A DNA stretch of 64,000 nt from positions 8,894,447-8,958,446 of the forward strand of contig CP136061.1 of assembly GCA_032622095.1 (NCBI GenBank). The letters are read 5' to 3'. The notes below the pieces were generated by a model. The model had not been told where the DNA came from. It was given only the letters and a program-made list of their open reading frames with translations, and searched no databases. The translations under genes were made by a program, and so were the position numbers. The stretch comes from Siphonodentalium dalli. Taxonomy: Eukaryota; Mollusca; Scaphopoda; Gadilida; Siphonodentaliidae. Within the stretch, counting starts at the first letter, position 1. The number at the start of each line of letters is the position of its first letter. This document shows, piece by piece, positions 28,408 through 63,720 of the stretch.

Positions 28408-29883
28408 CTATATCGACATGCTCTGTTCGTCTGTGCTATTTTTGTCGGTTTGAGTGGTTATATCGAAAGGATCATAATTTTCGGTTGACATGTTATATGT
28501 ATCGCAACTGGACTTGCTTTTACGCTTGTTTTGTTGTACTAATTGTTGGGTTGACATGTCATACGGATTGTATGGCTCGGTTGATGAACTAGCATTGTAA
28601 ATTCTTGCTTCATCGTTTTGAGTTAGCATTTCATAAGGGTTATATGGTTCGGTTGATGAAAATGATTGTTTTTCATGTTCGCGTTTTGATGCTACTAACT
28701 TATGTGCCATCTCTGGTAGGGGCACTGGTTCATTTGAATCCGATCCGTCCCGGATGACGCGGTTTTGTCGTATTAACTGTGTCAAGGGGGCTGTCTCATG
28801 GTTCTCATTTTCGGTGTCCGAATTGTTACTATTACTCGATATATCAGCATCTGAGCTTTGTGTTGATGAATTAAGTGGGAATACAAATCTGCTTTTCCGA
28901 ACTTTCTGGTTCTCTTGTAATTGTGGTGTATGCCATTTAGTCGTCGCTAATTTTAAATGTTTGGCATGACTTTTAGATAAACTGCCTGTAATTTGATTAC
29001 GAATCACATATGAAACTGGTCCTGTTTGTTTAATTATCACCCAAAATGGACCATATTGCATACCTAGTTTATGGGTTTGTCTGTGATTCTTAACATAGAC
29101 CTGGGAACCTATGGGAAATTCCGGTATTTTACCTTTACTGTTTTCGTTTCGTTTCGTCTTGACTTGTTTCATATTTTGTTTAACTAATTGAAATGCGAAG
29201 TGCTGCTTCTCTAGTAACTGTTGAATGAGGCATTCACCCGTGTATTTCTGTCGCGGTGTCAGTATCTTGTCAATATTTATTTGGGGGTGTCTGCAGAAAG
29301 TTAAAAAATATGGAGAAAATTGAGTCGTTGCTGAGACATGAAAATTCATGGCTTCTGATGCGAAATTGAGAAATAGGTCCCATGATGTTGGATTTCCCTC
29401 AGTTAATTTGGCTAATATTCCATTGTAGTCGCGATGAGATCGTTCGCTTGATCCGTTGCTGAAAGGCGCATAGAACGAGGTCTTGCGATGCTGAATAACA
29501 TAGTAGTTAGATATTATTTTGAATACCTCACTGCATACGTCACTGCCATTATCTGATACCAGACAAGCGGGATAACCAAATATGGTGAAATACTGAGTCA
29601 TAAGTCTTTCAGCGACCACTTCTGCGTGTTTTGTGGGAAGCGCATATGCCATTTTGTGTAAACTGAATAAATCTATGACCGTTAAAATGTAGGAATTGCC
29701 GCTGGCTGTGGGTGGGTTAAATTTTCCCATTAAATCTATCGCGATCATTTCCCCTGGTCGGCTCGGTATGTCCGTCATTTGATTTGGAATACGGGCAGTG
29801 TTTTGATTTCTTTGTTTACAAATGTGGCAATTGTTGGCGAAACTGACTATCATTGGGAACATTCGTGGCCAATAATATCGCAA
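28408..29883 (-). CDS. Ty3/gypsy integrase
   Basis: 491 codons. Part of the N-terminal zinc-binding region survives (YYWPRM, then NCHICKQ giving the C-x2-C pair). The histidines lie upstream, in a different frame from the RT frame, so the RT-integrase junction is frameshifted and possibly deleted. The catalytic core has D50 (AIDLMG), D111 (SDNGS) and E147 (NGSSERSH), exactly a D,D-35-E arrangement. A GPF motif (YGPFWVI) lies near residue 270. The roughly 150-residue tail is low-complexity with a duplicated TEPYNPY motif. It would insert element cDNA into chromosomal DNA. The frame is long and open, so decay is recent or assembly errors contribute. Confidence 0.92.
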   Translation of the reverse strand: MRYYWPRMFPMIVSFANNCHICKQRNQNTARIPNQMTDIPSRPGEMIAIDLMGKFNPPTASGNSYILTVIDLFSLHKMAYALPTKHAEVVAERLMTQYFTIFGYPACLVSDNGSDVCSEVFKIISNYYVIQHRKTSFYAPFSNGSSERSHRDYNGILAKLTEGNPTSWDLFLNFASEAMNFHVSATTQFSPYFLTFCRHPQINIDKILTPRQKYTGECLIQQLLEKQHFAFQLVKQNMKQVKTKRNENSKGKIPEFPIGSQVYVKNHRQTHKLGMQYGPFWVIIKQTGPVSYVIRNQITGSLSKSHAKHLKLATTKWHTPQLQENQKVRKSRFVFPLNSSTQSSDADISSNSNNSDTENENHETAPLTQLIRQNRVIRDGSDSNEPVPLPEMAHKLVASKREHEKQSFSSTEPYNPYEMLTQNDEARIYNASSSTEPYNPYDMSTQQLVQQNKRKSKSSCDTYNMSTENYDPFDITTQTDKNSTDEQSMSI

Positions 29884-31664
29884 ACGTATGGTATGATGTC
29901 TGATATAATATGGTCCTCTTTTTGCATTTCTTCGATATTGGTAGGTACATTTAGTTGTTCGTTTTCGGAAATTAATATAGTGTCGGGCAACGTATGCACT
30001 TTTTGTTTACCTATTGTCTTGACGTAATTTTTTATTTTCTGTGAATCTAATATGTTTAGTGATCCGTCATTGATCGCTATGTCATATGGCGTTTTCTCTT
30101 CGCTCTCTACTGAACAATCTGACATACTCTGTTGGTTTGTCGGGTCCACCCGGGAACAAAAGTCAGCGGCGATATTTTCAGACCCTTGTATATAAGTAAG
30201 TTTTGGATTGTATGCGGAAATTTCAATAAACCATTTTTGAATACGTTTATTAGCCATCTGAGTATTTTGAAACATAGAAACTAGGGGTAAATGATCTGTT
30301 CGTATTTCTACGTCCGATCCTTCTAGATAGAAATTGAGTTTCTTTAGACATACATATATGGCGAGTGCTTCGCGCTCTGTAGTACTGTAATTTCGTTGAG
30401 AGTGATTCAACTTTTTGCTAACAAAGCAAATTGGAAATTCCGGGGTTTTGATATCAGTTTCTAATTTGTTTTCTGGGTATGGCTGGACTAATGATCCCCC
30501 CACTGAATGCATTGATGCATCGCAATATAAGATCATTTTCCTGTTCCTATCAGGGTAGGCCAGAGTAGGTACTTTAAGCAAATTTTGTTTTAGTGTATCA
30601 AAAGCATTTTGACATTCTTCGGACCATGCAAATTTTGCGTAACGAGCAGTTAATTTAATTAATGATGCAGCAGTGTCGGAGAAATCTTTACAATAGTTCC
30701 GATAAAAATTAAAAATCCCTAATACTCTACGGACTTCTTTCACTGATGTTGGGGCTGGCACATCTTGTATGGCTTTAACTTTGGCGGGATCTGGGCGCGT
30801 TCCATTTTGTGATACGATATGCCCTAAAAATTTTACTTCTTTTATATAAAATTGGGACTTTGTTAATCGTGCTACTAATCCATACTCTCTGAGTCGTTTG
30901 AATACTATTTTGAGGTGCTGTTTATGGAGGGCCTCCGTTTCGCTGTGACAAATTAAATCGTCGACGAAGCTGTCAACAAAACTTAACCCTTCCAATGCTT
31001 TATGGATTAATGTCAAAAACGTCGCGCTCGAGTTGCAATAGCCAAATGGGGCCCTTGTGAAAGAAAACAATCCGAAATCTGTGTTCATAGTTAACTTTCC
31101 TTGATGTTCTTTGAGAACACCGATAACATGATAAGCTTGGCTAATGTCGATTGTGGAAAAAACTTTGGATTTTTGGAGGCGGCTGGAAACTTCGGTAAAA
31201 TGCCCTAAAATTTTTTATCGTAATGGGACGGTGATTTTATTTAGCTTTCTCAGGTCTATACATAGTCTATAATTTTGATTTCCATTAGGATCTACGATTC
31301 CCTTACGGATCAATAAGGCAGGGAATGACCAACTCGCGTTTGTAGTTTTCTTTATAATACCAGCATCTAATAATTTTTGAAGTGCTTTTTCCATGTGTTC
31401 GCGTCTATGTAATGGAGTAGGATACCCACGACAAAAGATAGGTTCTGCAACTGGTTTGGTATCAACACGCATGACTATTTTATCGCAAAATCCTACCTTA
31501 TTTGGATCGTTTGTAAACACATCTTGATATTGGGAGACCAGTTCAAGTAGTTCAATTTTGTGGTGGTCGGGGGCACATATATCGTCCAATTTGAAAGGTT
31601 TCTGGCCAGCCTTAGATATTTTTGTTTGATTTTCTATACTAAATACTTCTTGAGAATCATTCAT
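29850..31664 (-). pseudogene. Ty3/gypsy reverse transcriptase-RNase H, one internal stop
   Basis: The N-terminal 149 codons (31664-31215) hold the fingers region (LLDAGIIKKTTNASWSFPAL, YRLCIDLRKLN). A TAA at 31215-31217 interrupts. The same frame then continues without a frameshift through FGLFSFTRAPFGYCNS, the catalytic FVDD box (residues 41-44 of the downstream 412-codon frame), FLGHIVS and FNFYRNYCKDFS. RNase H follows: LYCDASMHSVGG, TEREALAIY and RTDHLPLV. So one nonsense change splits the polymerase. The downstream end overlaps the integrase frame by 34 bp in a different frame. It would copy element RNA into DNA if translated through. Confidence 0.93.
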
Positions 31665-31773
31665 TTTATTTGTGGTGGGTACCTTAGCCTTTGTTTGTCA
31701 GATCTGGTCTGAACTTAGGCCATGTGTTTTCGCAACTATATTACCTTTAAATATAGACATATACGAGTCTGAA

Positions 31774-32940
31774 TTAGACCGGTATATCTCGTTTTGATGC
31801 AGAAACTATCCCGTCCATAATGGACACATTAGGTTCATCCTTAAATATGCCGATATCGGCGTGACTTACTCCAAGATATGGTGTCTCATACATGTCTGGT
31901 GTACCAATTATTTTCGTGTTCACCAATGCACATGAATGTGGTGGTAATTTGATATCTTGCCGCGAACGTAGCAATGATGCTATATGTAAATCCTGTAACA
32001 TGGGAAATGTTTTGTTGCCTACTCTAAATGCATTCAAATCGAAATAGAGTCTTACATGTTTGTCTGTTAAAAAATCGCGACCAAAAATCGCTGATCTTGC
32101 TAGGTTGGGTAATATAAAGAATTTATGTACTAATGACATTGATCCAATTTTGAAGGGCAAATGTATACTGCCGTATACTTGCATATTTTGGCCTGTTGCT
32201 GAGGTCAGAATTATTTTTTCTTTTATTAACGGGGGCTTATTTGGAAGGGAGCGATATACATCATATTTTAAGCAACTTGTACTTGCCCCAGAGTCAAGTA
32301 ATGCCCTAATGCGTTGGTTACCAATTTTAATAATTGTTGAACAAGGCGTTTGCTGTTGCAGTCCTTGTGCAATCTCTGCATGGTATTTGAGTTTAGGTAA
32401 TGTATGCAATTGCATCTGTTCAGACTGGTTATTTATACTTTGACAGTTTTTACTCGGCTCATTATTATTATTATTTTGGTAAACCGTTGCTATTCGATTA
32501 GCTTGTCGTTGGTTTCGAGTTTTAGTGTTTACTTCACTATTAATGTCCTTTTGTTTGGGAACGATCTTATGTAATCGTTTATTCATATCTGTTATAACGT
32601 GACCAGCGGAATTTCTATTTATAATTGGAGAATGCACGTGTTTGTTCATGCTCGTATCAGCATGATAAGATGTATTTGGTTTCAATTTATTGCCCTGGTC
32701 TGAACGATGTCTCTGTTCGTTTGTAGTAGCACGTGCTACTCTGGTGTTTAGGGTACCAGTCACTGGTTTACTTGCATAACTGCTTAGCTTCTGGTAATTA
32801 GGTGCACATTTATTTATGGTCATATGTTTTGACGGTGTTTTGACTACGGTTTTAGTTTGATATCTTGCGCTCTGATGTGATGTATTATGATGATGATGAT
32901 TATGATTTTTAGAATGTCCTTGCGGCTTCTTCAAAGACAT
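31774..32940 (-). CDS. Ty3/gypsy protease-region ORF
   Basis: 388 codons. The first 200 residues are low-complexity, rich in H, N, K and T. A retropepsin follows with the active site LLDSGAS (D216-S217-G218) and the flap-side hydrophobic-G motif IFGRDFL (about 285-291). The ATG lies two bases after the gag stop in another frame, so expression from a full-length transcript would need frameshifting or reinitiation. The frame to the downstream RT also differs. In a working element it would cleave the Gag-Pol precursor. Confidence 0.88.
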   Translation of the reverse strand: MSLKKPQGHSKNHNHHHHNTSHQSARYQTKTVVKTPSKHMTINKCAPNYQKLSSYASKPVTGTLNTRVARATTNEQRHRSDQGNKLKPNTSYHADTSMNKHVHSPIINRNSAGHVITDMNKRLHKIVPKQKDINSEVNTKTRNQRQANRIATVYQNNNNNEPSKNCQSINNQSEQMQLHTLPKLKYHAEIAQGLQQQTPCSTIIKIGNQRIRALLDSGASTSCLKYDVYRSLPNKPPLIKEKIILTSATGQNMQVYGSIHLPFKIGSMSLVHKFFILPNLARSAIFGRDFLTDKHVRLYFDLNAFRVGNKTFPMLQDLHIASLLRSRQDIKLPPHSCALVNTKIIGTPDMYETPYLGVSHADIGIFKDEPNVSIMDGIVSASKRDIPV

Positions 32941-32942
32941 TC

Positions 32943-34148
32943 TTACATGTTTAAATAATGTTTGTTATTGTCTATGCGTCTTCGGCAATTTCGTATATCG
33001 TGGTTGCTCATCTTACATAGTGTGCAAAACTGGCGTTTCATTTTATTTGAGAAGTTTGGCCGGTTTGAGTTGTAGTCTATATTGTTTACTCGATCCTGGC
33101 GGATGTAATTGCTTTGTTTATTAAAGTTAGTATTCTGAAAATTGGATGGCATTCTGAATGGGGGGTTTTGCTGATGATTTGCGCGGTGCATTGGTTTGTT
33201 AGTTGCATAGCTATTAGATATATTATTGCGCGGTCTCCATAGTATGGGACGTCGCCTAAAATGGTCAACCTCCATGGGTTGTGGGAAGGAGTCGTGTATT
33301 TGGTGTTGTTCATTTGACCTCGATGTTCTATCACCATAGCGAAGTTTGAACCTCTGTTTAATGTTCATTTGTTTCATTGCGATCTCTGTGGCACGGTCGA
33401 GCGACGTTGGGTCATCTTTAATTAAGGTATATTTGATATGGTCATCGCGTATTCCATCCGCAAAAAATGTTACCAGTTGTGTTTGTACCGCGCGTGTATT
33501 TATTTCGTCAATAAAGGCGGTGTTTGCTAGTGATCGAATTCTCTCTGCGAACATAGGTATTGTTTCCTGGTGTGTTTGTTTTAATGTTCTCAACATGGCC
33601 AAGGCCTGTGGTGCGTCACTGATTGCGCTGAAACGAGATCTCAACTGTGCTTTTAAATCAGGCCATGTGAGCGTTAGTGTGCCGTTAACCGTATTTGCAT
33701 TGATGTATCGCTGCACGAATTCGGAAACAGATGAACGACTTGTCTGGGCCGCTATTTTAATTATTGTTTCATCCTCTGCACCAAGTGTCGAAGAATATTT
33801 CTCTATTTCGTGCATCCAATTGGAAAATTCTGATGGTTTACCATCAAATGATCTAACCATTGCGTTCATACCTATAATAGCAGATACTGTTGCTTGTGAA
33901 TGGGTGGCGGCGGAAGTCTCACGCATTGTCGTGTTAAATTGACCAATTTCTCGCGTTAGTTGAGAGATGAGGGTATTCTGGGTGTCCTGCGCGCTTGGAA
34001 TTTGAAAGGATGGATTTGGTATATTTATGTCTTGCATGTTTGAATTACTGGCCGCGTGTATGTGGCATTCTGGTTCCATATTGAAAGTTCGACTAAATAA
34101 ACTATCTTGATTAGAATATTCTACTGATTCGGGTGGCGGTGGTTCCAT
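32943..34148 (-). CDS. Ty3/gypsy gag
   Basis: 401 codons. The middle (about 100-260) is a retrotransposon-type gag domain: FDGKPSEFSNWMHEIEKY, then RSRFSAISDAPQALAMLRTL and FAERIRSLANTAF. At the C-terminus is a zinc knuckle CTLCKMSNHDIRNC (C-x2-C-x4-H-x4-C, about 375-388) that would bind RNA. The ATG at 34148 follows roughly 60 bp of leader. It forms the particle shell in working elements. The frame is intact. Confidence 0.9.
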   Translation of the reverse strand: MEPPPPESVEYSNQDSLFSRTFNMEPECHIHAASNSNMQDINIPNPSFQIPSAQDTQNTLISQLTREIGQFNTTMRETSAATHSQATVSAIIGMNAMVRSFDGKPSEFSNWMHEIEKYSSTLGAEDETIIKIAAQTSRSSVSEFVQRYINANTVNGTLTLTWPDLKAQLRSRFSAISDAPQALAMLRTLKQTHQETIPMFAERIRSLANTAFIDEINTRAVQTQLVTFFADGIRDDHIKYTLIKDDPTSLDRATEIAMKQMNIKQRFKLRYGDRTSRSNEQHQIHDSFPQPMEVDHFRRRPILWRPRNNISNSYATNKPMHRANHQQNPPFRMPSNFQNTNFNKQSNYIRQDRVNNIDYNSNRPNFSNKMKRQFCTLCKMSNHDIRNCRRRIDNNKHYLNM

Positions 34149-34449
34149 GACAGTTAATTAAATCTGTTAACTGTTTTGTTTGAAAATTGTTTGGGGACAA
34201 GGGCCATACCATGCGAAAAATTTAGGGTGGAATTGGGTGTTAATAATCAAGCCTCTAACAAGGTGTGAAAACGCACATCTGGCAAAAATGAAAAAGTTTG
34301 ACTCACCAAATCCTATGAATAAACTGTCACAACTGTCGAGTTCAAATTGTCTATTTGTTCTTTTCTTTGGATTATGCTGGAAATGTTTATGTCGTCTGGC
34401 GTCTTTCTTCTTTTTCTTCTTCTTTCTCTTCTGTCTCTTCTGGTCTTCA

Positions 34450-35833: not shown

Positions 35834-37239
35834 TTAAACTGTGTCTTCCAACACTAGACAGAAGAGCTTCCACTGTGTGTTTATATCATCTTTGCAGTCC
35901 TCTAGAAATTTGTTCCAGTCCATGTCAAGATCTTTCTTCATCTGTGCGTAGTTTCCAGCCGAGTAGACTTTTTTCTTTAAGTTATTTATGTGTGTGTAGC
36001 ACTTGAAGTTGAAGTCAATCATGGAGTGGTCAATCTTTCCTAGTGGGCTGCAAATCGTTATGTTGGTAATCATATTTTCTTCATTGGTCAGTACCAGATC
36101 TAGTGTACTTGCTCTCTGTCCTAGTCTTCCTCTTGTTAGCTATATGATGTGTTGCGTTAAGAAGCTTTCATTAACAGTATTGATGAACTCTTCTCCTTTA
36201 TTGTTTGTAGCTGTCTGAGCTTTCCAATCAATGGATGGATGGTTAAAATCAATGGATGGATGGTTAAAATCAATGGATGGATGGTTAAAATCAATGGATG
36301 GATGGTTAAAATCAATGGATGGATGGTTAAAATCAATCGATGGATGGTTAAAATCAATGGATGGATGGTTAAAATCAATGGATGGATGGTTAAAATCAAT
36401 GGATGGATGGTTAAAATCAATGGATGGATGGTTAAAATCAATGGATGGATGGTTAAAATCAATGTATGGATGGTTAAAATCAATGGATGGATGGTTAAAA
36501 TCAATGGATGGATGGTTAAAATCAATGGATGGATGGTTAAAATCAATGGATGGATGGTTAAAATCAATGCATGGATGGTTAAAATCAATGCATGGATGGT
36601 TAAAATCAATGCATGGATGGTTAAAATCAATGCATGGATGGTTAAAATCAATGCATGGATGGTTAAAATCTCCCATGAGGAGAATGTGTGAATAATCCCG
36701 ATTTCTGCATATTTCCTTTATTGTTTTGTGTATTTTGTCATCAGTTTCTTCTGTACTTGTGTTATGACTTATACATATCCTATCAGCATTTTGTCTCTTA
36801 TTTCTAGTGTAACTGTTATCCATACAGCTTCACTCAGTTCTTCGTTTATAATTTGCTCTTCTGCAGAGATATTCGCCTTCACATACATCAAGACTCCTCT
36901 TCCTTTGTTACTGGTTAAGTTCTTGTGGATCATGACGTAACCGTCTACGGTATATAACGCGGGTAGGATGTCCTTACTTTTCTTCGGCTTAACCTCTGTG
37001 ATGCAGATTATGTCATACTTCTCTTCTTCAACTAAGTGTCTGAGCTCATTCATTTTGTTTGACAGACTATCTGCATTCAGGGATAAAATGTGTAGTCCCT
37101 CCACCTTGTGCAAATGTTTTGGTGCATTTGGTGCATCTAACGTATTTACAGATTTCCTCTTCTTTTTGAGGCCTACCTTGCTTCTTTTTTCTTTACTTTC
37201 TTCAGAGTCCATGGAGGGCCCCGAACCTGATAGAACCAC
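35834..37239 (-). pseudogene. CR1/L2-like LINE apurinic-type endonuclease, frameshifted and internally expanded
   Basis: Pieces in minus-strand order. 37239-36769: N-terminal half with ILSLNADSLSNK and the catalytic glutamate in DIICITE. A one-base shift follows near GYV. 36823-36140 then runs through NTSTEETDDKIHKTIKEICR to the MGDFNHP motif. That motif is amplified about 21 times as a 7-residue repeat before DWKAQT resumes. 36073-35834: C-terminal end with PLGKIDHSMIDF, where the usual S of the SDH catalytic motif is I. The enzyme would nick target DNA; this copy is non-functional. Confidence 0.88.
36231..36668. repeat. 21-bp minisatellite inside LINE endonuclease, ~21 copies
   Basis: The unit atggatggttaaaatcaatg(g/c) reads DFNHPSI or DFNHPCI on the minus strand. 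Five consecutive units carry the C variant (36570-36660 side), one carries Y, one has atcgatgg, and the rest are identical. Because 21 is a multiple of three, several long artefactual frames arise on both strands. Confidence 0.97.
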
Positions 37240-40633: not shown

Positions 40634-43183
40634 TCACGCCAAAGACGAACGATGGTTCCATTCGCACCACAGAGCCCTAGTCTCCTTCAAAAAGTATCTC
40701 ATTATGGTTTGTGGTGGAATGCATGCAATGTCCAAAAGTTCGTTAGGCAAATAGCCTAGAAAGAGGGCTATAAGCCTCTCCTGATCAAAAGATTCCACAA
40801 GTTGAAATGCCTCTAAAGGAAACATATCTATAAAGTGATACCAAAAACGATTACGCGATGCTGCAAGTTCCGGGAAATCCGCTATAATGTGTTGCGGTAG
40901 GTCTATATAACTTTGCGCACATACTAGGCACTGAGTTTCACCAGCAAAATTTCGGTAACACAGTAGTTGTGTCGCGATGAAAAACAACTCCGTCTCATCT
41001 GGGTACATTTGGCAGACTTTCCATAAAAACGATAATTCTGGACTGCTGTGAACCAAACAAAATCTAACAAATGTGGGTTCCGTGCGTACCCTGTAAGACC
41101 AGTCAGATTTCCAAACATGGCTGCCCTGTTTCGATAGGGTTTTCAAAACTGTTTTCTCTGGAAACATGCAGAGCTGTTGATAAATATTGAGACATATAGG
41201 AGGACAAACTCCAGTTATCAAGAATACTGGATAGGTCCTGAAAAAACACATTCTTCGATGAGTATTGGATTCATATGAAAAGCTCAGTAATCTGATGATA
41301 AATACATCTTTAACAGTTGTTTTAGACTCGAGTAAACAAAATGATGAAAACAAGGACACTTTTCTACAATTAATAAATGTGATTAAAGGAGGAATACCAA
41401 GCAGGCCCAAGACCATGTCTGTGCTAGTCCTAGTTTTGAGGCCTTGTATAAGTTTGAGGCACATACGGTGTACTTTCTCTAGTTGAACAGTGTCGGATTG
41501 AGAGAGACCACACAAAACTTCACTACCGTATAAGCCTCGTGGTAAGACCACGGACTTGTAAATCTTGAGAGAGCTCGCTGGGGTAATACCGCCTGCTTGC
41601 AGGCCAGCATTAGCCAAAGAGAAGAAAGCGTTCTTCGTTTTTGTGCAAATATTCTCAACAAGTTTTGAGCGAAAATTATATTTCTCAAGAGGAATACCTA
41701 AATGAGTAACACTTTCGGTTTCTGTTAGGCGATGAGAGGACATGTGCCAGTTCTTATGACGCTTAAGTGCTGCGTTAGCACTTTCATTGAAAACAATGAT
41801 ATGGGTTTTGTTTGGGTTGTATTTGTAACGCCATGTCAAGCTGTATTCGACACATATATCCACAAGAGACTGAAGTCCATATGCAGTTAAAGAGAAAAGT
41901 GCCATGTCATCGGCATGCGTTGGACAAGTGCAGTTTGTTCCTTGCATCGAAAAGCCATATCCCGATGACTTTAGATTTGACAAAAGATCATTGATATATA
42001 TAATATAAGAGAGGGGAGATAGGGTACCCCTTTGCCTTGTTCCTTGCAGCATTGTGATCCACCTAGAACAACTACCTTGGTATTTAATGCAAGAGCAAAT
42101 ATTGTTCAACAAGTGGTAAAAGAGCCTCCACAGTTTTCCCTGTAATTGCTTCTTATGCAGTTTATACAATAACCTGTTTATCCAAACACTATCGAAAGCT
42201 TTCCATACATCCAAGAAACAGGCAAACAGTTTGCTCTGTCTCTCGGATGTATACGCTATACTTTCTGTGACAAGAAAAGAAGACATATTGCAACTTATGC
42301 CCCGCTGGAACCCATTTTGCAAGGGATCAACTTCAATGGCAAAGGCAGTATACTTCTCCATTCTCGATAATAAGAGTTTCTCAAAATGTGTATATATTGC
42401 TGGTAGCAGAGTAATTGCTCTGTAGCTATCAAAGGAATCTTTTGGTTTAGGGTGTCCCTTGTATAGAGATATTATACAACCACGCTTAGAACCAAGTGGT
42501 ATATGTTCAAATTGGAAGAAGTAGTTGTACAAGGTAGCAATGCAGCGGGCAAGAGCCTCACCACCAAAACTAATATGCTCATAATTTATACCATCTACAC
42601 CAGCTGCTTTATTGAGGTTTAAAGTGCGACAAAGATATGTGATTTCCTCCATGTTAGTTGGAAAAGTTAACAATCCGTCTAATGGGCACCTTGAATTTTT
42701 CATCGATTCAGTCTCTACAAATTGGTTGACATGGTTAAAATGTAATTCACCAAACTTAGGATCCGTTAGCGGTGTGGAAAAAATGTTATAATAGTACTCA
42801 GACCAAGCTTCAAGAATATCTGGGGTGTCTCGTACTATCGAGTTTTCAAAGGAGAAGCATGTGCTACCAAGTGTCCCTAATGATTTGCGTTTGGCATTAA
42901 AGAGTCTGAAGAAAGTATGTTGATCACACTCAGCGCTTTTATCTATGTCATCATTAAAAGACCGAAGAAAATTTGTTGATGCCCTCCGGTATTCGCACCT
43001 GAAAGAGCATTTGGCATCCTTATAACAGCGATATAAACCAGTTGCATCGTTAATTGGCCTACCAGCCGAAATCCAAACAGATCTGTGATATCGCATACTC
43101 TTGTGAAGTAAGCTTAATTCTTTCGACCAGTAAGGTTTAAGAAACTTCTTAAAACGTTTCTTTTGGGATATTATTCTGAGCAT
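40634..43183 (-). CDS. LINE ORF2: reverse transcriptase, 849 codons, open
   Basis: A long uninterrupted polymerase frame. The region after the endonuclease comes first (FLKPYWSKELSLLHKSMRYH). RT motifs follow: LNKAAGVDGINYEH (about 190-203), motif A FLDVWKAFDSVW (323-334), motif B GTRQRGTLSPLSYIIYINDL (381-400) and motif C THADD (422-426; H for the usual Y is common in LINEs). The thumb contains YNPNKTHIIVF and LYGSEVLCGLS. A cysteine/histidine cluster CLVCAQSYIDLPQH (about 740) may be the C-terminal zinc finger. The endonuclease upstream is truncated and in another frame, so the element cannot be autonomous as it stands. The intact RT suggests recent activity. Confidence 0.93.
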   Translation of the reverse strand: MLRIISQKKRFKKFLKPYWSKELSLLHKSMRYHRSVWISAGRPINDATGLYRCYKDAKCSFRCEYRRASTNFLRSFNDDIDKSAECDQHTFFRLFNAKRKSLGTLGSTCFSFENSIVRDTPDILEAWSEYYYNIFSTPLTDPKFGELHFNHVNQFVETESMKNSRCPLDGLLTFPTNMEEITYLCRTLNLNKAAGVDGINYEHISFGGEALARCIATLYNYFFQFEHIPLGSKRGCIISLYKGHPKPKDSFDSYRAITLLPAIYTHFEKLLLSRMEKYTAFAIEVDPLQNGFQRGISCNMSSFLVTESIAYTSERQSKLFACFLDVWKAFDSVWINRLLYKLHKKQLQGKLWRLFYHLLNNICSCIKYQGSCSRWITMLQGTRQRGTLSPLSYIIYINDLLSNLKSSGYGFSMQGTNCTCPTHADDMALFSLTAYGLQSLVDICVEYSLTWRYKYNPNKTHIIVFNESANAALKRHKNWHMSSHRLTETESVTHLGIPLEKYNFRSKLVENICTKTKNAFFSLANAGLQAGGITPASSLKIYKSVVLPRGLYGSEVLCGLSQSDTVQLEKVHRMCLKLIQGLKTRTSTDMVLGLLGIPPLITFINCRKVSLFSSFCLLESKTTVKDVFIIRLLSFSYESNTHRRMCFFRTYPVFLITGVCPPICLNIYQQLCMFPEKTVLKTLSKQGSHVWKSDWSYRVRTEPTFVRFCLVHSSPELSFLWKVCQMYPDETELFFIATQLLCYRNFAGETQCLVCAQSYIDLPQHIIADFPELAASRNRFWYHFIDMFPLEAFQLVESFDQERLIALFLGYLPNELLDIACIPPQTIMRYFLKETRALWCEWNHRSSLA

Positions 43184-43337
43184 AAACCTTGATAGAATGA
43201 ATTATGTTTTCATAAAATGTATCCAACTCAGACTTGTCATTACGTCATCATGTGGTAACGACGTAGCTACATCTGACTGATACGACAATTGCATTACAGT
43301 GTCTAGCTTAAATTTCTTCCAACATAACTTACATGTA

Positions 43338-55228: not shown

Positions 55229-56065
55229 TTTCTCATCCGTCACAGCTCATAGCAATGCAGTTAGAGAAACGGGAACACTTCCTGGGGCACCAAAAGTTAT
55301 TCTGGTTTCATTCAATGGATTCAGATGGGAATATTTAAAAAGAGCACACACTCCAAACTTTGATAACATAATTGAACGAGGCATTAATGCAAAATACGGC
55401 ATAAAAAATGTTTTCTTGACTAAAACAGTTCCGAACCATTAGTCATTACACGATCGTAACTGGTTTATACGAGGAAAGCCATGGAGCCGTCGGAAATGAT
55501 ATGTACGACCCACACTTGAACCGTAGATTCTCAATACATAATCTTACCCAGGACACTGAATCGGAATGGTTTGACAATGGCGGTGAACCTATTTGGGTGA
55601 CAAACCAAATTGCAAGCCCTGGTCGAAAAAGCGGCATCGTATCGTGGCCAGGAAGCGCTGCATCAGTCAAAGGGACATTACCTTCAAAATACCTACTGTA
55701 TAATAAACTTCTCACTTTCAAAACGCGTGTCGATATCTTGATAAGCTGGTTCAAAGACAAATTTCCTATAAACCTTGGACTGTTGTACTTTGAGCAGCCT
55801 GACAAACTTGGACATCAAGCTGGTCCAGAATCAGAGAATATAACTCGACTCATATCAGAACTCGATAGCTTAGTGGGTTATTTGCTGGATGAACTCGAGG
55901 AACATAACCTGCTGGATAGCATAAATTTGTTGATAACAAGTGACCACGGTATGGCGTCGACTCCACCTGACAAGCAAATAAACTTGGACATCTACATAGA
56001 TCCACACCAGTATCAAGTGACAACATCCAATCCTGTTGCAGGGATCTATCCAGCAGAAGATGAGT
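55229..56065 (+). pseudogene. ENPP (nucleotide pyrophosphatase/phosphodiesterase)-like exon, disabled
   Basis: A large exon of an ENPP4/5-like ectoenzyme. A good acceptor (cacattttcag) ends at 55228 and a good donor (ga|gtaaag) lies at 56066. It encodes PKVILVSFNGFRWEYL, the nucleophile region FLTKTVPNH, then (other frame) GGEPIWVTNQIASP, FEQPDKLGHQAGPESENIT, LLITSDHGM and SNPVAGIYP. Family members hydrolyse phosphodiester bonds of extracellular nucleotides or lipids, using Thr and two zinc ions. Two defects: seven extra bases (near 55440-55446) after PNH give a stop and frameshift, and the first zinc-ligand Asp (SFDG in the family) is Asn. The remaining ligands D..GH and DH are kept. The next exon was not found in the window. 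A decayed gene or partial duplicate is likeliest. Confidence 0.85.
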
Positions 56066-56109
56066 AAAGTATTATTGGCAGGGCCCGATTTAACTGGATT
56101 TGTATCACA

Positions 56110-58849: not shown

Positions 58850-60829
58850 AACGTAAAGATAAATTACCATCGGTGCCCGAGATATCGCCAAGACGTCTGA
58901 AACAGTCAAATGCATCGGCCGGTTAAGCGTTAACGTGATCTAACGTTATGACCTCTAACGACGTCATAGAAGTTACGCATTGTTTTTATCCTGATGGAAG
59001 ATAGTACCACTTCTTCTTGATAATTGAGGCAGATAACTAAAACGGATACATACGCATTATATATCGTTGGAAAGAGGAAACACGAAAGATTCTCACAGTG
59101 TCATTATTATGACTGGCATTTTATTATTCGCGCTGTTTCGAATCGATTTGTAAGCACCGAACTCAAATGAAAGTCCCGTAACACAGCGTAAAAACAGATT
59201 TGACCTCGGTACATGTACATATTTTGGAAACTAAAAACTTCCTCAGAGGCTCGAAAGAGCAAATACTAGTACACCCTTTCCTTCACCCCTCAATATACCA
59301 CCTCTATATATGTGCTAATACTAGTAATCATACAAGAATAGCCTGGTTGACAAATACACGAAACATTGTATGCATTGGCGTCAAGTGGTTTGGTAAATAC
59401 TTTACATGGCCATTTTCCAGCTGTTTAAATTTTTCGCACATAAATGAAACGAGCCCTCTTTATTTATGACATTTCTGGAACGCTCCGTGTAAACTGTAAA
59501 TAGCTGATTTTTGGTTGGGACCCAAACATCATGGTCAATGTTGTATTTGTTATGACCTCAATGCATCTTTTTGGGCGGGTTCAAATATAGTTACATGTAG
59601 CCTACACGCACTTAGCATTTTGCAAACTCCGTGTAGTGTTCGATCCCATACGCATGCAGGGCGTCAGACGAGGGGACTGAACTCTGTTTTGCAGCTCAGC
59701 ATTTTCTTTAACGAAAGGGGTGGCTCATGGTGCAATTGTAAATTCCTATTTGGCAGTATATAACTCCACGGATGTCCGGCTAACTCAGTTATTTTTCACG
59801 AGATAGTTCCATGGAATTATATACATTTATCTCAAGGTTTAAATAATATCTTCATATAAAGTCTACGCCTTTCTTTCCAACTCTCAGCTTAATAGTCCTC
59901 ATTTTTGGGCTGGTGCATTCTAAGTGAACAATATGTGCTGGGGCAATTCAAGTTCAATACATTACTTTATATCTCTATCTATATTTTCATCAATAAGTTC
60001 TCATCACATTCTCAACTCCGACAATACACAATCATCAATCTGCTAGATGTAGATATGTAGACTCTACAAACATAAATAAACAAGTCCTAATTTCTAGATT
60101 AAGGGAAGAGGTATACCTCCCAACATACAGACATGATACACCCTTACACAATCATACTACTAGTTATATAGAATAACCTATACACACATAAGGGATATAT
60201 TAATGCTCTGTCAGAGACTTTCTACAAACTACTACTTGAAGTTTCACAAACACAAAGTATAGATGAATATGTAATAACTATAAATATGCAATTAAATGAG
60301 AATTAATTATAGTTTACCATATTATAAAGTGAACTATCCATAATTATAAAACGGACATATTCCAATTATGGAGAATCACAAGTGGATCTCTATTGACGAC
60401 AATAGGAAAAATGGGTTAAAATATATATCATTGAAACGAACATAAAAGTACATTGAACATACCTAAACGATGAGTTTTGAGTCTGGATGTCTCCTTGTAC
60501 CTGTAGAATAGTTTTGCAAACATTATTAAAACTTTAGCTCCATTAATTAACTGTTTATAATTGAGTTTGTTGAAAACGCAGCACCTTCTTTTCAACAATG
60601 AAAACCAACTGACATTTCGCGGTTAAACCAACCCATCCCAATAAAAGTATTCGGCTGACTTAGGTTTTAGCGCGAAACTAAATATTAAAGCAATACGATT
60701 TGTTTATGAGGGATAGTGAAGTGCAGTTAAGATTAATTACGGACTAATTAAGTGTTAAAGAGTTAGTAAGACATGCACATGCAGATATTATTAAAATCCT
60801 ACATTTGATGCATTATTTACCTTTACATG
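58850..60829. other. non-coding
   Basis: No gene, RNA or clear repeat. 59640-59700 shares acgcatgcagggcgtcagac...ctgaactctg with 47030-47065, a small R1-related piece. Confidence 0.45.
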
Positions 60830-60876
60830 TGTAACGGGAGAAGGGTGGAATGCAACACCCGAAATCTCAGGCCACC

Positions 60877-60937
60877 GGTTACCCATCCAAGTGCTAACCG
60901 GGCTCGACGTTGCTTAACTTCGGTGACGAGACAAGGC
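60877..60937 (-). promoter_or_regulatory. 5S rRNA-derived internal promoter in 3' LTR
   Basis: On the minus strand, tctcgtc, accgaagttaagcaacgtcg and cccggttagcacttggatgg correspond in order to about nt 33-92 of animal 5S rRNA, with a 4-nt deletion at about 40-43 and few substitutions. The stretch spans the A box, intermediate element and most of the C box bound by TFIIIA/TFIIIC. Just upstream, tggtccagtgg (60955-60945) fits a tRNA-type A box. The 5' LTR copy (61190-61237) has lost the C-box part. Pol III transcription is inference. Confidence 0.85.
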
Positions 60938-61102
60938 GTCTTAACCACTGGACCAAAGAAGCATGCTGTTGATTAATCGGCCTTCTATATTTACAACGCG
61001 ACCGCTACATTCCTCCCTTCCTCGTTTTGAGGTTCACCACCAAGTGATCCTCACCCAAGTTCCTCTCACAGAGCGGTCGCACCATGACACAGACTCTGAG
61101 GA

Positions 61103-61117
61103 CCGGACGAGCCCCCA
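61103..61117 (-). promoter_or_regulatory. primer-binding site, tRNA-Pro type
   Basis: TGGGGGCTCGTCCGG is complementary to the 15 terminal nucleotides of tRNA-Pro including CCA, the primer used by several animal retroelements such as gammaretroviruses. It starts one base from the LTR end. Confidence 0.88.
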
Positions 61118-61375
61118 GTGTAACGGGAGAAGGGTGGAATGCGGGAGTAGCACCGAAAGTTGGCAACACCCGAAATCTCAGGCCACCTGAGTGCTAACCG
61201 GGCTCGACGTTGCTTAACTTCGGTGACGAGACAAGGCGTCTTAACCACTGGACCAAAGAAGCATGCTCCGTTGGAGCTGTGATTAATCGGCCTTCTATAT
61301 TAACAACGCGACCGCTACACATGTAAATATATCACGGCCACAAGTACACCCCCCCCCCCGACAGTTATATAGGCA

Positions 61376-62327
61376 TGGGAGGTTATACAGCATATAACTG
61401 GAGGTGGAATTGTGTCCACTGGTGTAGCCTAGACTTAAGTAGGCCTATTCATGGAAATCCACAAGCAGGGACGTGACGGTTTACACCTTGGAAGTTACAA
61501 CTGCACCCCTTCGGGGTTTAATTTCCCAAATTACTGCTCCGTCACGGTCTGGATGGTAGCATTATTCTAAATAGATCATTGGTATTCAATTGTTGCCACG
61601 GCCAGGAGTGGAACGGAATACACTGAGAACATTTTTGGATCCTAACCTGAAAATTGCAGACTCCTAACACCTAGACTGGCCTCAAGATTTCCAATTGTTG
61701 GAAATTTCCAACCTGAGACCCCCCCCCCCCCCCCAACCATAAGGTCAGAAAATGTCCAACTGATTCCATATCAATCTAATTTTACCAAAAAGTAATATGC
61801 AAATGTTCTAAAAACAATTAAAAATTCTTGCAAAATCAAACTACGAGAACAATCTCAGCCTATAAATTATAATAGTGTTGGTGTAACCGTGTGGGAGTTC
61901 CAATTAATGTTGTATCATGTATGAAATATCCAACTGTTGACAATATTGCCAAAGTTTGGCCGTGGTGGGAATGTGAGACACCCGTGCAACACCCTGCCGC
62001 CTAGGTCAAAATGACCGCTTTCGCATATTGCTGCTCCCAGCGCACCACGTTCATGACTGAACTATGCCTGCCGCCATGTCCCTAAATCCATGCATTATAC
62101 CATGCATTGATCGTGAAATTTAGGTAGTAATTAAAATGCCATTACACAAAACTGACACAATTTTGTTTTCGTTTCTAAGAATTGAAGGGTTAAACTTCAA
62201 ATTCAAACTTTAAGTTGCTTGTGTAGGAAATCAATCGGACGACGCACGCTTATCGTTGAAATTCCAAGTTATTCGACACGATATCTCAACTAAAGTACTT
62301 ACCGGTACTTCTTCGGATCCATAGCTG
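61376..62327 (+). repeat. dispersed repeat R1, copy D (left part)
   Basis: Collinear with copy C: gtgtccactggtgtagccta, gactggcctcaagatttcca, ttgaagggttaaacttcaaa, gcacgcttatcgttgaaatt and ttaccggtacttcttcgg. The right part resumes at 63664 after a foldback insertion. A C-run lies at 61719-61733. Confidence 0.82.
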
Positions 62328-63663
62328 TATGGCAAGCCAAACCGCTATTTAATATTAATTTTACTTAAGTAAAATAAAATTACACTTTATTTTACTTAAG
62401 TGAAATAAAATGTCATTTTATTTCACTTTAGTGAAATAACGGTCATTTTTTATGTTACTTAAGTAAAATAAATGACATCTATGGATGACCGGTAGATGGC
62501 GTTTATTTCACTTAAGTGAAATAAAGCGCCCACTATGGGAGTCATCTTGCAAACTAACAATTGCTCCCTTGGCACGTGTGCCGGGAGTGCTGTTTCATGT
62601 TCGTGAGAAAGTTATCTCCCGTTGTGTATTATGAGTGCATTTGAGCAACTCAGGCCATTCTGAACTCCTCGACATGTGACCTCTGCGGGCCAAGGGTGAC
62701 GGTAACGGAATCTGACGAGGTTTGCCGGATGCAACCCAGCCTACAGTCGTAGCCGGCTAGGCATGCGCAGTAGAAGCTACAGAAAGCTGCAGCCGGCCAC
62801 AGCTGGTGGTCACTAACTATTGTACCGCAACTCCGAACTTGGAATGTTGGCATTATGTTGCAATATCAATTCACCAATGGTCTCGCTCGCTGCAGCAAGT
62901 ACATTTGAAGCAATTAACACTCGTACTAAGTCCATGCCTCCATAACTCTGATATTTAAAAGAGTATGTGATTATATCTCGTTCTCAGCACAATAAGCATC
63001 AAACACAAACGCATCACACATTTTAGCAGTTTTCTCTGATTATTGCGGTAATGGCAGTAGTGTGGAATGTTCTCAATTTTATTGCATGAGGTTGGTGCTA
63101 ATCTCATTCTGTCATCTATATATCATGAAACACTCGCTGTCCTTATAACAAGATCACATGTGGTTTGGTGGGATTTGGCGTTGGTCTCTAAACTGATTGG
63201 GGGGAAATCATTAATAACTCTTAACACATGGTTGCACTTTATTTTACTTAAGTAAAATAAATGACATATATCGATGACCGGTAGATGGCGTTTATTTCAC
63301 TTAAGTGATGTCATGACCGTTAACCGTTCACTTAAGTGAAATAAACCCAAATGTTCATTTATTTTACTTAAGTAAAAAAAAATTTTAATTAAGTTAAATA
63401 AAAACTGTGTTTTATTTCACTTAAGTAAAATTCTTTTTTACTTAAGTAAAATAAAAAAGGGCGTAACATAATGGTAATTTTATTTCACTTAAGTAAAATT
63501 AGTGTGCGTTTTAATTTTATTTAAGTAAAATAAAGTGTCATTTTATTTTACTTAAGTAAAATAAAACCATGTAGATAGCGGTTTATTTCACTTAAGTAAA
63601 ATAAAATGACACTTTATTTTACTTAAGTAAAATTAATATTAAATAGCGGTTTGGCTTGCCATA
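62328..63663. mobile_element. 1.34-kb foldback built of ACTTAAGT palindromes
   Basis: The ends tatggcaagccaaaccgcta and the exact complement tagcggtttggcttgccata are inverted. They continue inward as ttaatattaattttacttaa and its complement. Arms 62360-62530 and 63235-63640 contain about 20 copies of the palindrome ttacttaagtaa or tcacttaagtga. The core 62530-63230 is unique sequence without a recognisable gene. Flanked by TAGCTG (62322-62327, 63664-63669), or ATAGCTG if the terminus is one base shorter. Confidence 0.88.
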
Positions 63664-63720
63664 TAGCTGGTGATGGCGTTAGCTGGTGCATTATCCAAAT
63701 AATAATCCATTAAATGAGAA
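63664..63720 (+). repeat. dispersed repeat R1, copy D (right part)
   Basis: gctggtgatgg then ggtgcattatccaaataata and atccattaaa continue the match to copy C (48036-48047 and 48503-48535). Confidence 0.75.

What the first reader, a model, noticed from the sequence alone, without database searches (positions are those of the whole stretch)
60830..61319. Cassandra-like TRIM with 5S rRNA promoter in its LTRs, apparently in an animal genome
Seen directly: paired TG...CA LTRs (201 and 180 bp), CATG target duplication, a 15-nt tRNA-Pro primer-binding site one base from the 5' LTR, a 14-nt purine tract abutting the 3' LTR, a 109-bp non-coding interior, and about 55 nt of 5S rRNA sequence (nt ~33-92) in element sense inside the LTR. 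Known: plant Cassandra TRIMs carry 5S sequences in their LTRs and are non-autonomous. Inference: this is an animal counterpart, independently evolved or very ancient, possibly transcribed by Pol III. I am not aware of a description in this host group.
Basis: partly seen in the sequence, partly recalled or inferred. Interest (0 to 1): 0.92.

Follow-up and report, generated by a model that had tools for sequence, protein, structure and literature searches.

The report
Animal mini-retrotransposon with 5S promoter LTRs
A very short, gene-less retrotransposon in what looks like a mollusc-type animal genome carries the start switch of the 5S ribosomal RNA gene in both of its ends, an arrangement known from plants (Cassandra) and ribbon worms (Ajax), here with a different primer and target-site length.

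Summary
On the minus strand, 61319 to 60830 is a 490-bp LTR element without genes: LTRs of 201 and 180 bp, CATG duplications, a 15-nt tRNA-Pro primer site, a 14-nt purine tract, and 5S rRNA sequence in sense inside each LTR. It is a damaged copy of a repeat family. Of 32 complete copies examined, 27 have exact 4-bp target duplications; 5 of 6 solo LTRs do too. Intact LTRs are mostly 213 bp (207 in one subfamily) and match the host's own 5S gene from nt 34 to 111-119; at nt 42-91 one LTR from each of three subfamilies has 48-50 of 50 bases identical. Among 14 LTR clusters, the 5S box A-IE-C block is the best conserved 44-bp window of LTR 31-190. The 'first in animals' inference fails: Kojima (2024) described Ajax, a 5S-LTR TRIM, in two nemerteans. 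This lineage differs from Ajax as published (4-bp not 5-bp duplications; tRNA-Pro not tRNA-Leu). Best reading: a further lineage of Pol III-promoter TRIMs ('TRIMp3'), moved in trans by an unidentified tRNA-Pro-primed LTR retrotransposon. Pol III transcription is inferred. The window copy's own 5' LTR has lost much of box C.

The parts
60826..60829 (.). target site duplication CATG, left copy
   Evidence: identical to 61320-61323; 27 of 32 complete copies have exact 4-bp duplications, shifted controls 0-1 of 32
60830..61009 (-). 3' LTR, 180 bp (shortened by deletions)
   Evidence: TG..CA ends; most complete copies have 213-bp LTRs
60856..60935 (-). 5S rRNA-derived stretch in the 3' LTR (LTR nt 75-154; host 5S nt 34-110)
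   Evidence: 69 of 75 aligned bases identical to the host 5S gene, 7 gap columns; box A 15/15, IE 6/6, box C 17/18
61010..61023 (-). polypurine tract GAGGAAGGGAGGAA abutting the 3' LTR
   Evidence: sequence; PPT-LTR junction pattern 46 times in the genome, 0 in reversed control
61010..61118 (-). non-coding interior, 109 bp
   Evidence: 40 scored genomic matches (window included) at 95-100% identity
61103..61117 (-). primer-binding site, 15 nt complementary to tRNA-Pro 3' end, one base from the 5' LTR
   Evidence: LTR-end plus PBS pattern 66 times in the genome, 0 in reversed control
61119..61319 (-). 5' LTR, 201 bp
61158..61235 (-). 5S rRNA-derived stretch in the 5' LTR (LTR nt 85-162; host 5S nt 34-119), box C region partly deleted
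   Evidence: 67 of 77 aligned bases identical to host 5S, 10 gap columns; box A 15/15, IE 6/6, box C 10/18
61320..61323 (.). target site duplication CATG, right copy

Best explanation
This is a degenerate copy of a TRIM (non-autonomous miniature LTR retrotransposon) whose LTR carries a captured 5S rRNA gene internal control region. Shown: paired LTRs, tRNA-Pro-type PBS, PPT, 4-bp duplications, solo LTRs, tandem copies, no coding capacity, 5S box A-IE-C identical or nearly so to the host gene in recent copies and relatively conserved between diverged clusters. Inferred: TFIIIA, TFIIIC and TFIIIB assemble on the LTR 5S block; Pol III starts about 50 nt upstream of box A (around LTR nt 53) and reads through the element, which in the recent copies tested has no TTTT run, into the 3' LTR; the RNA is packaged by the particle of a Ty3/Gypsy-like element, primed by tRNA-Pro, copied, and integrated by that element's integrase with 4-bp duplications. 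The 5S block gives a promoter that lies inside the transcript, so each new copy carries its own promoter.
For: Structure and duplications: 32 of 40 copies (39 fetched loci plus the window) were complete, 27 of 32 with exact 4-bp duplications; four pairs share flanks, leaving 23 of 28 independent insertions. Solo LTRs: 5 of 6 with 4-bp duplications (4 of 5 if the two with the same flank count once). 5S match of copy L017 to the host gene: 113 vs shuffle maximum 42 of 2000; nt 42-91 identity 48, 49 and 50 of 50 in one LTR each of L017, L045, L052. The 44-bp box A-IE-C window ranks 1 of 116 overlapping windows for low mismatch between 13 other cluster representatives and the young cluster, LTR 31-190. 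LTR-PBS junction 66 genomic hits, control 0. No TTTT in the sense strand of 5 of 5 copies tested, with TTCTT near the predicted start. tRNA-Pro priming has a fossil: L067 carries a 38-nt copy of the tRNA-Pro 3' half next to the LTR (37 of 38 identical to recalled human tRNA-Pro). Animal Helenus TRIMs also make 4-bp duplications, and Kojima infers Gypsy mobilisation for them (PMC10886601).
Against: No transcription data. The Rfam 5S model stays below its cut-off in 4 of 4 copies tested (17-20 bits against 38). Subfamilies A and B and the L089 cluster have a 4-nt insertion after host nt 92, inside the box C span. L052's other LTR has a box A mismatch. The older cluster representatives mostly read GAGCTC, a change inside IE, and GTCCTTGG. 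The window copy's 5' LTR lacks part of box C, so this copy is probably silent. 5S promoters are said to depend on upstream signals (passage in PMC3272025). TTCTT is missing at that place in 12 of 13 other-cluster representatives, and one of these (L060) has TTTTT there. No autonomous partner was identified: all 46 PPT-LTR junction hits are TRIMs (45 lie in places already known as TRIM, one was fetched).
Confidence: 0.8

Rival explanations
1. It is a member of Ajax, the nemertean 5S TRIM lineage, that diverged in duplication length and primer, so there is one old animal origin rather than two.
For: Same architecture and size class (Ajax 421-434 bp), 5S promoter region in LTR, animal host, similar reported numbers (Ajax-1_LiLo 1114 LTRs, 151 interiors; PMC10886601). 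The host is not identified, and a nemertean is not strictly excluded.
Against: 4-bp rather than 5-bp duplications (27 of 32) and tRNA-Pro rather than tRNA-Leu PBS. Weak host evidence: 3 of the 5 ENPP hits that name an organism are bivalves, the others an annelid and a bird (83 hits in all, most unnamed). Ajax sequence could not be compared.
Confidence: 0.2
2. The LTR moves by an ordinary Pol II promoter and the 5S stretch is a passenger (for example an old SINE3 insertion) without function.
For: No expression data; the first 30 bp of the LTR are also conserved (0.097 mismatch between clusters), and older clusters have a change inside IE; 5S promoters need upstream signals (PMC3272025).
Against: The 5S box block is the best conserved 44-bp window in LTR 31-190 (rank 1 of 116 overlapping windows), and recent copies match the host gene at up to 50 of 50 bases.
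Confidence: 0.14
3. The two repeats are a chance tandem duplication of a 5S-derived SINE.
For: 5S-derived SINEs (SINE3) exist in animals (PMC10886601, PMC3272025); some copies here are tandem (L039, L090, L066, L067).
Against: LTR ends, PBS and PPT recur in 32 complete copies and 4-bp duplications in 27 of them; solo LTRs with duplications.
Confidence: 0.01
4. The LTR holds a chimeric Pol III promoter: a tRNA-like box A (LTR 66-84) directly upstream of the 5S block, giving a start site independent of TFIIIA.
For: LTR 66-84 of L017 matches a recalled human tRNA-Ser 5' part at 16 of 19 bases; the best score over 8 recalled tRNAs (tRNA-Glu) was reached by 12 of 2000 dinucleotide shuffles; both promoter types would start near LTR 53 (inference).
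Against: Present only in the young subfamilies; most older clusters read differently there. No Rfam tRNA hit in three loci at E <= 10. No clear box B.
Confidence: 0.1

Closest known systems
Ajax (Kojima 2024, PMC10886601), nemertean 5S TRIM
   Same: TRIM with a 5S promoter region in its LTRs, PBS, animal host, similar length
   Different: Ajax: 5-bp duplications, tRNA-Leu PBS, only the promoter part of 5S. Here: 4-bp duplications, tRNA-Pro PBS, 5S from nt 34 to 111-119. Sequence homology untested.
Cassandra (land plants)
   Same: TRIM with 5S-derived LTR promoter; tandem arrays are reported for it (title of PMC7215508, listing only)
   Different: Host kingdom; Cassandra 565-860 bp (PMC10886601) versus 490-544 bp for the 32 complete copies here. 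No Cassandra sequence was compared.
Helenus (tRNA-LTR TRIMs of animals, fungi, plants; PMC10886601)
   Same: TRIM with small-RNA-gene promoter; animal Helenus has 4-bp duplications and tRNA-Pro is among the bivalve Helenus primers
   Different: Helenus carries a tRNA-derived box A plus box B; here the captured gene is 5S
SINE3 (5S-derived SINEs)
   Same: 5S-derived Pol III promoter, non-coding
   Different: SINEs have no LTRs, PBS or PPT and depend on non-LTR retrotransposons (PMC10886601)

Membership tests
TRIM | Under 1000 bp, paired short LTRs with TG..CA ends, PBS and PPT, no protein coding | tested here: met
   32 complete copies of 490-544 bp, a few with one altered LTR end base; window copy
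TRIM | Target site duplication of 4-6 bp | tested here: met
   27 of 32 exact 4-bp; 1 fits 5 bp; 4 neither
TRIMp3 (Kojima 2024) | Small-RNA-gene Pol III promoter sequence inside the LTR | tested here: met
   box A 15/15 and IE 6/6 in five LTRs of four copies; box C 16-18 of 18 in four of them (4-nt insertion not counted), 10 of 18 in the window 5' LTR; box limits recalled
TRIMp3 (Kojima 2024) | Transcribed by RNA polymerase III | not testable with these tools
   no RNA data
Ajax | 5-bp target duplications | tested here: not met
   27 of 32 have exactly 4 bp, 1 fits 5 bp
Ajax | tRNA-Leu PBS | tested here: not met
   PBS is of tRNA-Pro type in all 32 complete copies, with small variants
Ajax | Sequence similarity to Ajax-1_NGe / Ajax-1_LiLo | not tested
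   consensus is in supplementary files, no look-ups allowed
Cassandra | Land-plant host | tested here: not met
   ENPP exon at 55420-56067; the five hits naming an organism are three bivalves, an annelid and a bird
Helenus | tRNA-derived sequence with boxes A and B in the LTR | tested here: not met
   no tRNA by ARAGORN in the window; no Rfam tRNA hit in 3 loci at E <= 10; box A-like match only in young subfamilies
SINE3 | No LTRs; 5S head plus LINE-like tail | tested here: not met
   LTR, PBS and PPT structure; tail not examined

The most novel reading that the evidence does not exclude
A third, independent capture of the 5S promoter by a miniature LTR retrotransposon, in a mollusc-like animal lineage. 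It is old (14 LTR clusters at 90% identity, several sharing their own derived letters), and its promoter block keeps following the host's own 5S gene variants: one cluster shares the ACCTGG form with the chromosome 2 5S genes seen, the young cluster shares ACTTGG with the C6 and C9 5S genes seen.
Probability: 0.3. Interest if true: 0.68.

Novelty: new variant of a known kind. Interest (0 to 1): 0.52.

Why it matters
Plants (Cassandra), nemerteans (Ajax) and now this genome have miniature LTR retrotransposons with a 5S promoter in the LTR; Ajax and this one differ in primer and duplication length. If the origins are independent, that points to a real advantage of an internal Pol III promoter for parasites of LTR retrotransposons. 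Copies of graded age and several host 5S gene types in one genome make it possible to test whether the element's promoter tracks the host gene, as reported for Cassandra. The unsolved question of which autonomous element moves such TRIMs can also be attacked here.

Tried and rejected
Tandem 5S SINE: rejected. Full-length 5S gene in the LTR: the part upstream of host nt 34 is not 5S-like above shuffles in any of 14 cluster representatives (smallest 176 of 500 shuffles reaching the score; 4 of the 14 rows used nearly the whole LTR because the anchor motif was missing, and are uninformative). tRNA plus 5S chimeric promoter: kept as a weak rival. Window Gypsy (28408-34157) as the partner: no other exact tRNA-Pro PBS in the window and no LTR pair found by self-BLAST. 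Partner through the shared PPT-LTR junction: all 46 hits are TRIMs. Partner through the shared PBS: of 34 PBS loci fetched with wide flanks, 28 hold TRIM sequence and 6 do not (L057, L064, L070, L072, L074, L076). The six corresponding longer stretches (L097-L102) have no better than 6-7 errors to the TRIM leader motif in the 1500 nt after the PBS. One of them (L074/L098) has an integrase zinc-binding domain about 3.9 kb after the PBS, one (L057) a gag match below the cut-off (E 0.0061); L099 and L101 hold reverse transcriptase frames of 849 and 1071 codons not linked to the PBS. Candidates, not shown. Leader-LTR RNA pairing: 9-nt complement, but subfamily B breaks one pair without compensation. 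Host species: not identified. Nine contigs and 2.23 Gb do not fit Cipangopaludina cathayensis (1.48 Gb, nine chromosomes; passages of PMC10379862); passages of a chiton genome paper (PMC12005716) gave chromosome numbers 8 to 13 but no match was established. Host tRNA-Pro gene: not found because the search did not complete.

Full report
OBSERVATION. On the minus strand (61319 to 60830) lies a 490-bp element: 5' LTR 201 bp, interior 109 bp, 3' LTR 180 bp, flanked by CATG. The interior starts one base after the LTR with TGGGGGCTCGTCCGG, complementary to the 3' end of tRNA-Pro (tRNA letters recalled), and ends with the 14 purines GAGGAAGGGAGGAA. ARAGORN finds no tRNA in the window. Rfam finds nothing at curated cut-offs in the whole window; at a permissive threshold on 60700-61500, 5S_rRNA is the only family, at 20.2 bits, E 0.19.

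HOST 5S. Searching the window's own genome (2.23 Gb, nine contigs) with the 5S family gave 47 scored matches, all above cut-off, on C2, C6 and C9 (95474 loose first-look candidates, most not scored). Aligned to one of these genes, an LTR of copy L017 matches 5S nt 34-119 with 75 of 84 aligned bases identical and 7 gap columns, score 113, against a maximum of 42 in 2000 mononucleotide shuffles; the window LTRs score 86 and 107; subfamily C (L052) matches nt 34-111. At nt 42-91, one LTR each of L017, L045 and L052 has 48, 49 and 50 of 50 bases identical to the host gene. Box A (50-64) and IE (67-72) are 15/15 and 6/6 in the five LTRs tested. Box C (80-97) is 16-18 of 18 in four and 10 of 18 in the window's 5' LTR, which has a deletion there (box limits recalled). 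L052's other LTR has one mismatch in box A. Subfamilies A and B and the L089 cluster carry a 4-nt insertion after host nt 92, inside the box C span, which the identity count ignores.

COPIES. The whole element finds 43 scored matches, with 1286 loose first-look candidates, most not scored. LTR alone: 1102 candidates; interior alone: 284. These are not copy counts. I fetched 39 loci besides the window copy; 32 of these 40 were complete by my end-motif rule (8 dropped for missing or altered ends or truncation). Exact 4-bp flanking duplications: 27 of 32; shifted controls 0 or 1 of 32. Four pairs share flanks (segmental or assembly duplicates), so 23 of 28 independent insertions. The misses are L019, L021 (fits 5 bp), L033, L039 (tandem) and L042. 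LTR-LTR p-distance: median 0.019, range 0 to 0.06. Of the LTR-only places, six were fetched: none has interior next to the LTR in the 301 bases read; five have 4-bp duplications, two of those five sharing the same flank.

The pattern LTR end + PBS (TACANTGGGGGCTCGTCCGG) occurs 66 times in the genome, the reversed control 0 times. I fetched 34 of these loci with wide flanks (35 hits; L085 and L090 were already on earlier lists) plus six further places: 28 of the 34 hold TRIM sequence, 21 of them diverged (LTR matches at about 68-86%, short pieces higher), 6 do not. A leader motif after the PBS (GTGTCATGGTGCGACCGCTCT, up to 4 errors) is present at 27 of the 29 TRIM hits and at none of the 6 non-TRIM ones. 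The PPT + LTR start pattern occurs 46 times, control 0; 45 lie in places already known as TRIM and the last (L109) was fetched and is one. Tandem copies occur at L039, L090, L066 and L067.

CONSERVATION. From these loci 116 LTRs were extracted (both ends of many copies, duplicates included) and fall into 14 clusters at 90% identity (sizes 92, 11, 2 and eleven singles). Singles may be decayed copies rather than lineages, but the older ones share letters of their own, so there are at least a young group (subfamilies A, B, C), the L089 group and an older group. Between clusters the LTR start (1-30) and the 5S box region are among the best conserved parts. Taking the young cluster as reference and 13 other representatives, the 44-bp box A-IE-C window has the lowest mismatch of 116 overlapping windows in LTR 31-190; LTR 1-30 (0.097) and 176-190 (0.118) are also low. 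Within the young cluster the block is not less variable than the rest (0.02-0.07 against 0.01-0.09), as expected if inserted copies decay freely. Within the block, LTR 116-130 is poorly conserved between clusters (0.272), because the older clusters mostly read GAGCTC (a change inside IE) and GTCCTTGG where the host reads GAGCCC and GTACTTGG. At 5S nt 79, 9 of 11 LTRs of the L089 cluster read ACCTG, the form seen in the C2 5S genes; they also carry a G75C change not seen in the host genes read. At least 86 of 92 young LTRs read ACTTG, the C6 and C9 form, 40 of them with a T76C change. This fits tracking of host variants, as the title and abstract start of PMC10853983 claim for Cassandra, but it is one transition and may be chance.

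PROMOTER UPSTREAM. The LTR part upstream of the 5S match is not 5S-like by shuffles. In the young subfamilies LTR 66-84 resembles a tRNA box A, but most older clusters do not share it. I leave its origin open.

PRIMING. In L067 a 38-nt copy of the tRNA-Pro 3' half lies directly at an LTR end (37 of 38 identical to recalled human tRNA-Pro). In L064, a different element with LTR-like direct repeats, the same 38 nt occur (36 of 38) and continue as an inverted copy. Both stop at the same tRNA position, at the base of the anticodon stem. I read these as fossils of tRNA-Pro priming with copying beyond the usual stop.

MECHANISM. Shown: LTR-type integration, tRNA-Pro-type PBS, PPT, no genes, a 5S promoter block. 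Inferred: TFIIIA-dependent Pol III transcription from the LTR, start near LTR 53 (where host nt 1 would fall). There is no TTTT in the sense strand of five copies tested, all recent, so Pol III could cross the interior; TTCTT at LTR 61 in four of them (60 in the window copy) could end transcripts in the 3' LTR with a very short repeat, as in Cassandra (18 bp according to PMC10886601). That last step is weak: 12 of 13 other-cluster representatives lack TTCTT there and one of them has TTTTT. Mobilisation in trans by a Ty3/Gypsy-like element is inferred from the 4-bp duplications and from tRNA-Pro-primed non-TRIM elements in the genome, one of which has an integrase zinc-binding domain. No partner is shown.

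LITERATURE. PMC10886601 (outline, parts 1-4 of 6 of the text, and the figure and table section read) describes Ajax in Notospermus geniculatus and Lineus longissimus: 5S promoter part in LTRs, 421-434 bp, 5-bp duplications, tRNA-Leu PBS; and Helenus, tRNA-derived, with 4-bp duplications in animals and tRNA-Pro among the bivalve primers. The listings of my searches for Cassandra, TRIMp3/Helenus/Ajax and 5S-derived LTR elements (two showed 25 of 115 and 15 of 219 papers) showed no description in another animal group; a 2026 meeting report only cites Helenus and Ajax (passages). The library lacks most subscription journals, and Repbase was not searched.

HOST. An ENPP-type exon at 55420-56067 has 83 hits; the five that name an organism are Mizuhopecten (59%), Tegillarca (57%), Pinctada (53%), the annelid Ridgeia (48%) and a bird (40%). 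Probably a lophotrochozoan, perhaps a mollusc; species unknown.

VERDICT. Real, well-formed and old. As a kind it is known (TRIMp3; Cassandra, Ajax). As a lineage it does not meet the published features of either 5S group, and the searches named above list no description of it.

Noticed in passing
L067:1-3901 (minus orientation, near 547 and 901) and L064 (minus orientation, near 601): 38-nt copies of the tRNA-Pro 3' half beside LTR ends (a second one in L067 is decayed); they stop at the base of the anticodon stem, as if reverse transcription copied the primer up to the anticodon loop or a tRNA half served as primer. In L064 the copy is followed by its inverted repeat.
   Followed up: partly
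window 61010-61118 (minus), LTR start 60998-61009 (minus): The leader motif after the PBS (CATGRTGCGACCGCT) is kept in diverged TRIMs and holds a perfect 9-nt complement of the LTR start (AGCGGTCGC); possible RNA stem enclosing the PPT. Mean duplex energy -17.8 vs -12.5 for shuffles over 70 segments, a value that 4.7% of shuffles reach; no compensatory changes seen.
   Followed up: partly
window 61010-61118 (minus): In relatives (L046) the interior has a perfect 9-bp inverted repeat, GAGGTTCAC..GTGAACCTC, before the PPT; the window copy has one mismatch in it.
   Followed up: no
window 28408-34157 (minus): Gypsy-type element with gag (below cut-off), RT, RNase H and integrase domains in separate frames; no LTR pair or tRNA-Pro PBS detected.
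   Followed up: partly
window 36140-36829 (minus): Array of a 21-bp minisatellite (repeated 7-residue FNHPSID in translation) beside an endonuclease/exonuclease-domain frame, open in several frames.
   Followed up: no
window 40634-43201 (minus): 855-codon open frame with a reverse transcriptase domain, LINE-like.
   Followed up: no
window 62323-63668: Dense cluster of overlapping inverted and direct repeats, partly palindromic.
   Followed up: no
G000 C2, C6, C9 (L009-L016, L056): The host has at least two 5S gene types in different places, differing at ACTTGG (C6, C9 genes read) versus ACCTGG (C2 genes read) and near the 3' end.
   Followed up: partly
window 61119-61319 and 60830-61009: The two LTRs of the window copy differ by 2 substitutions but by several separate deletions, each LTR with its own.
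   Followed up: no
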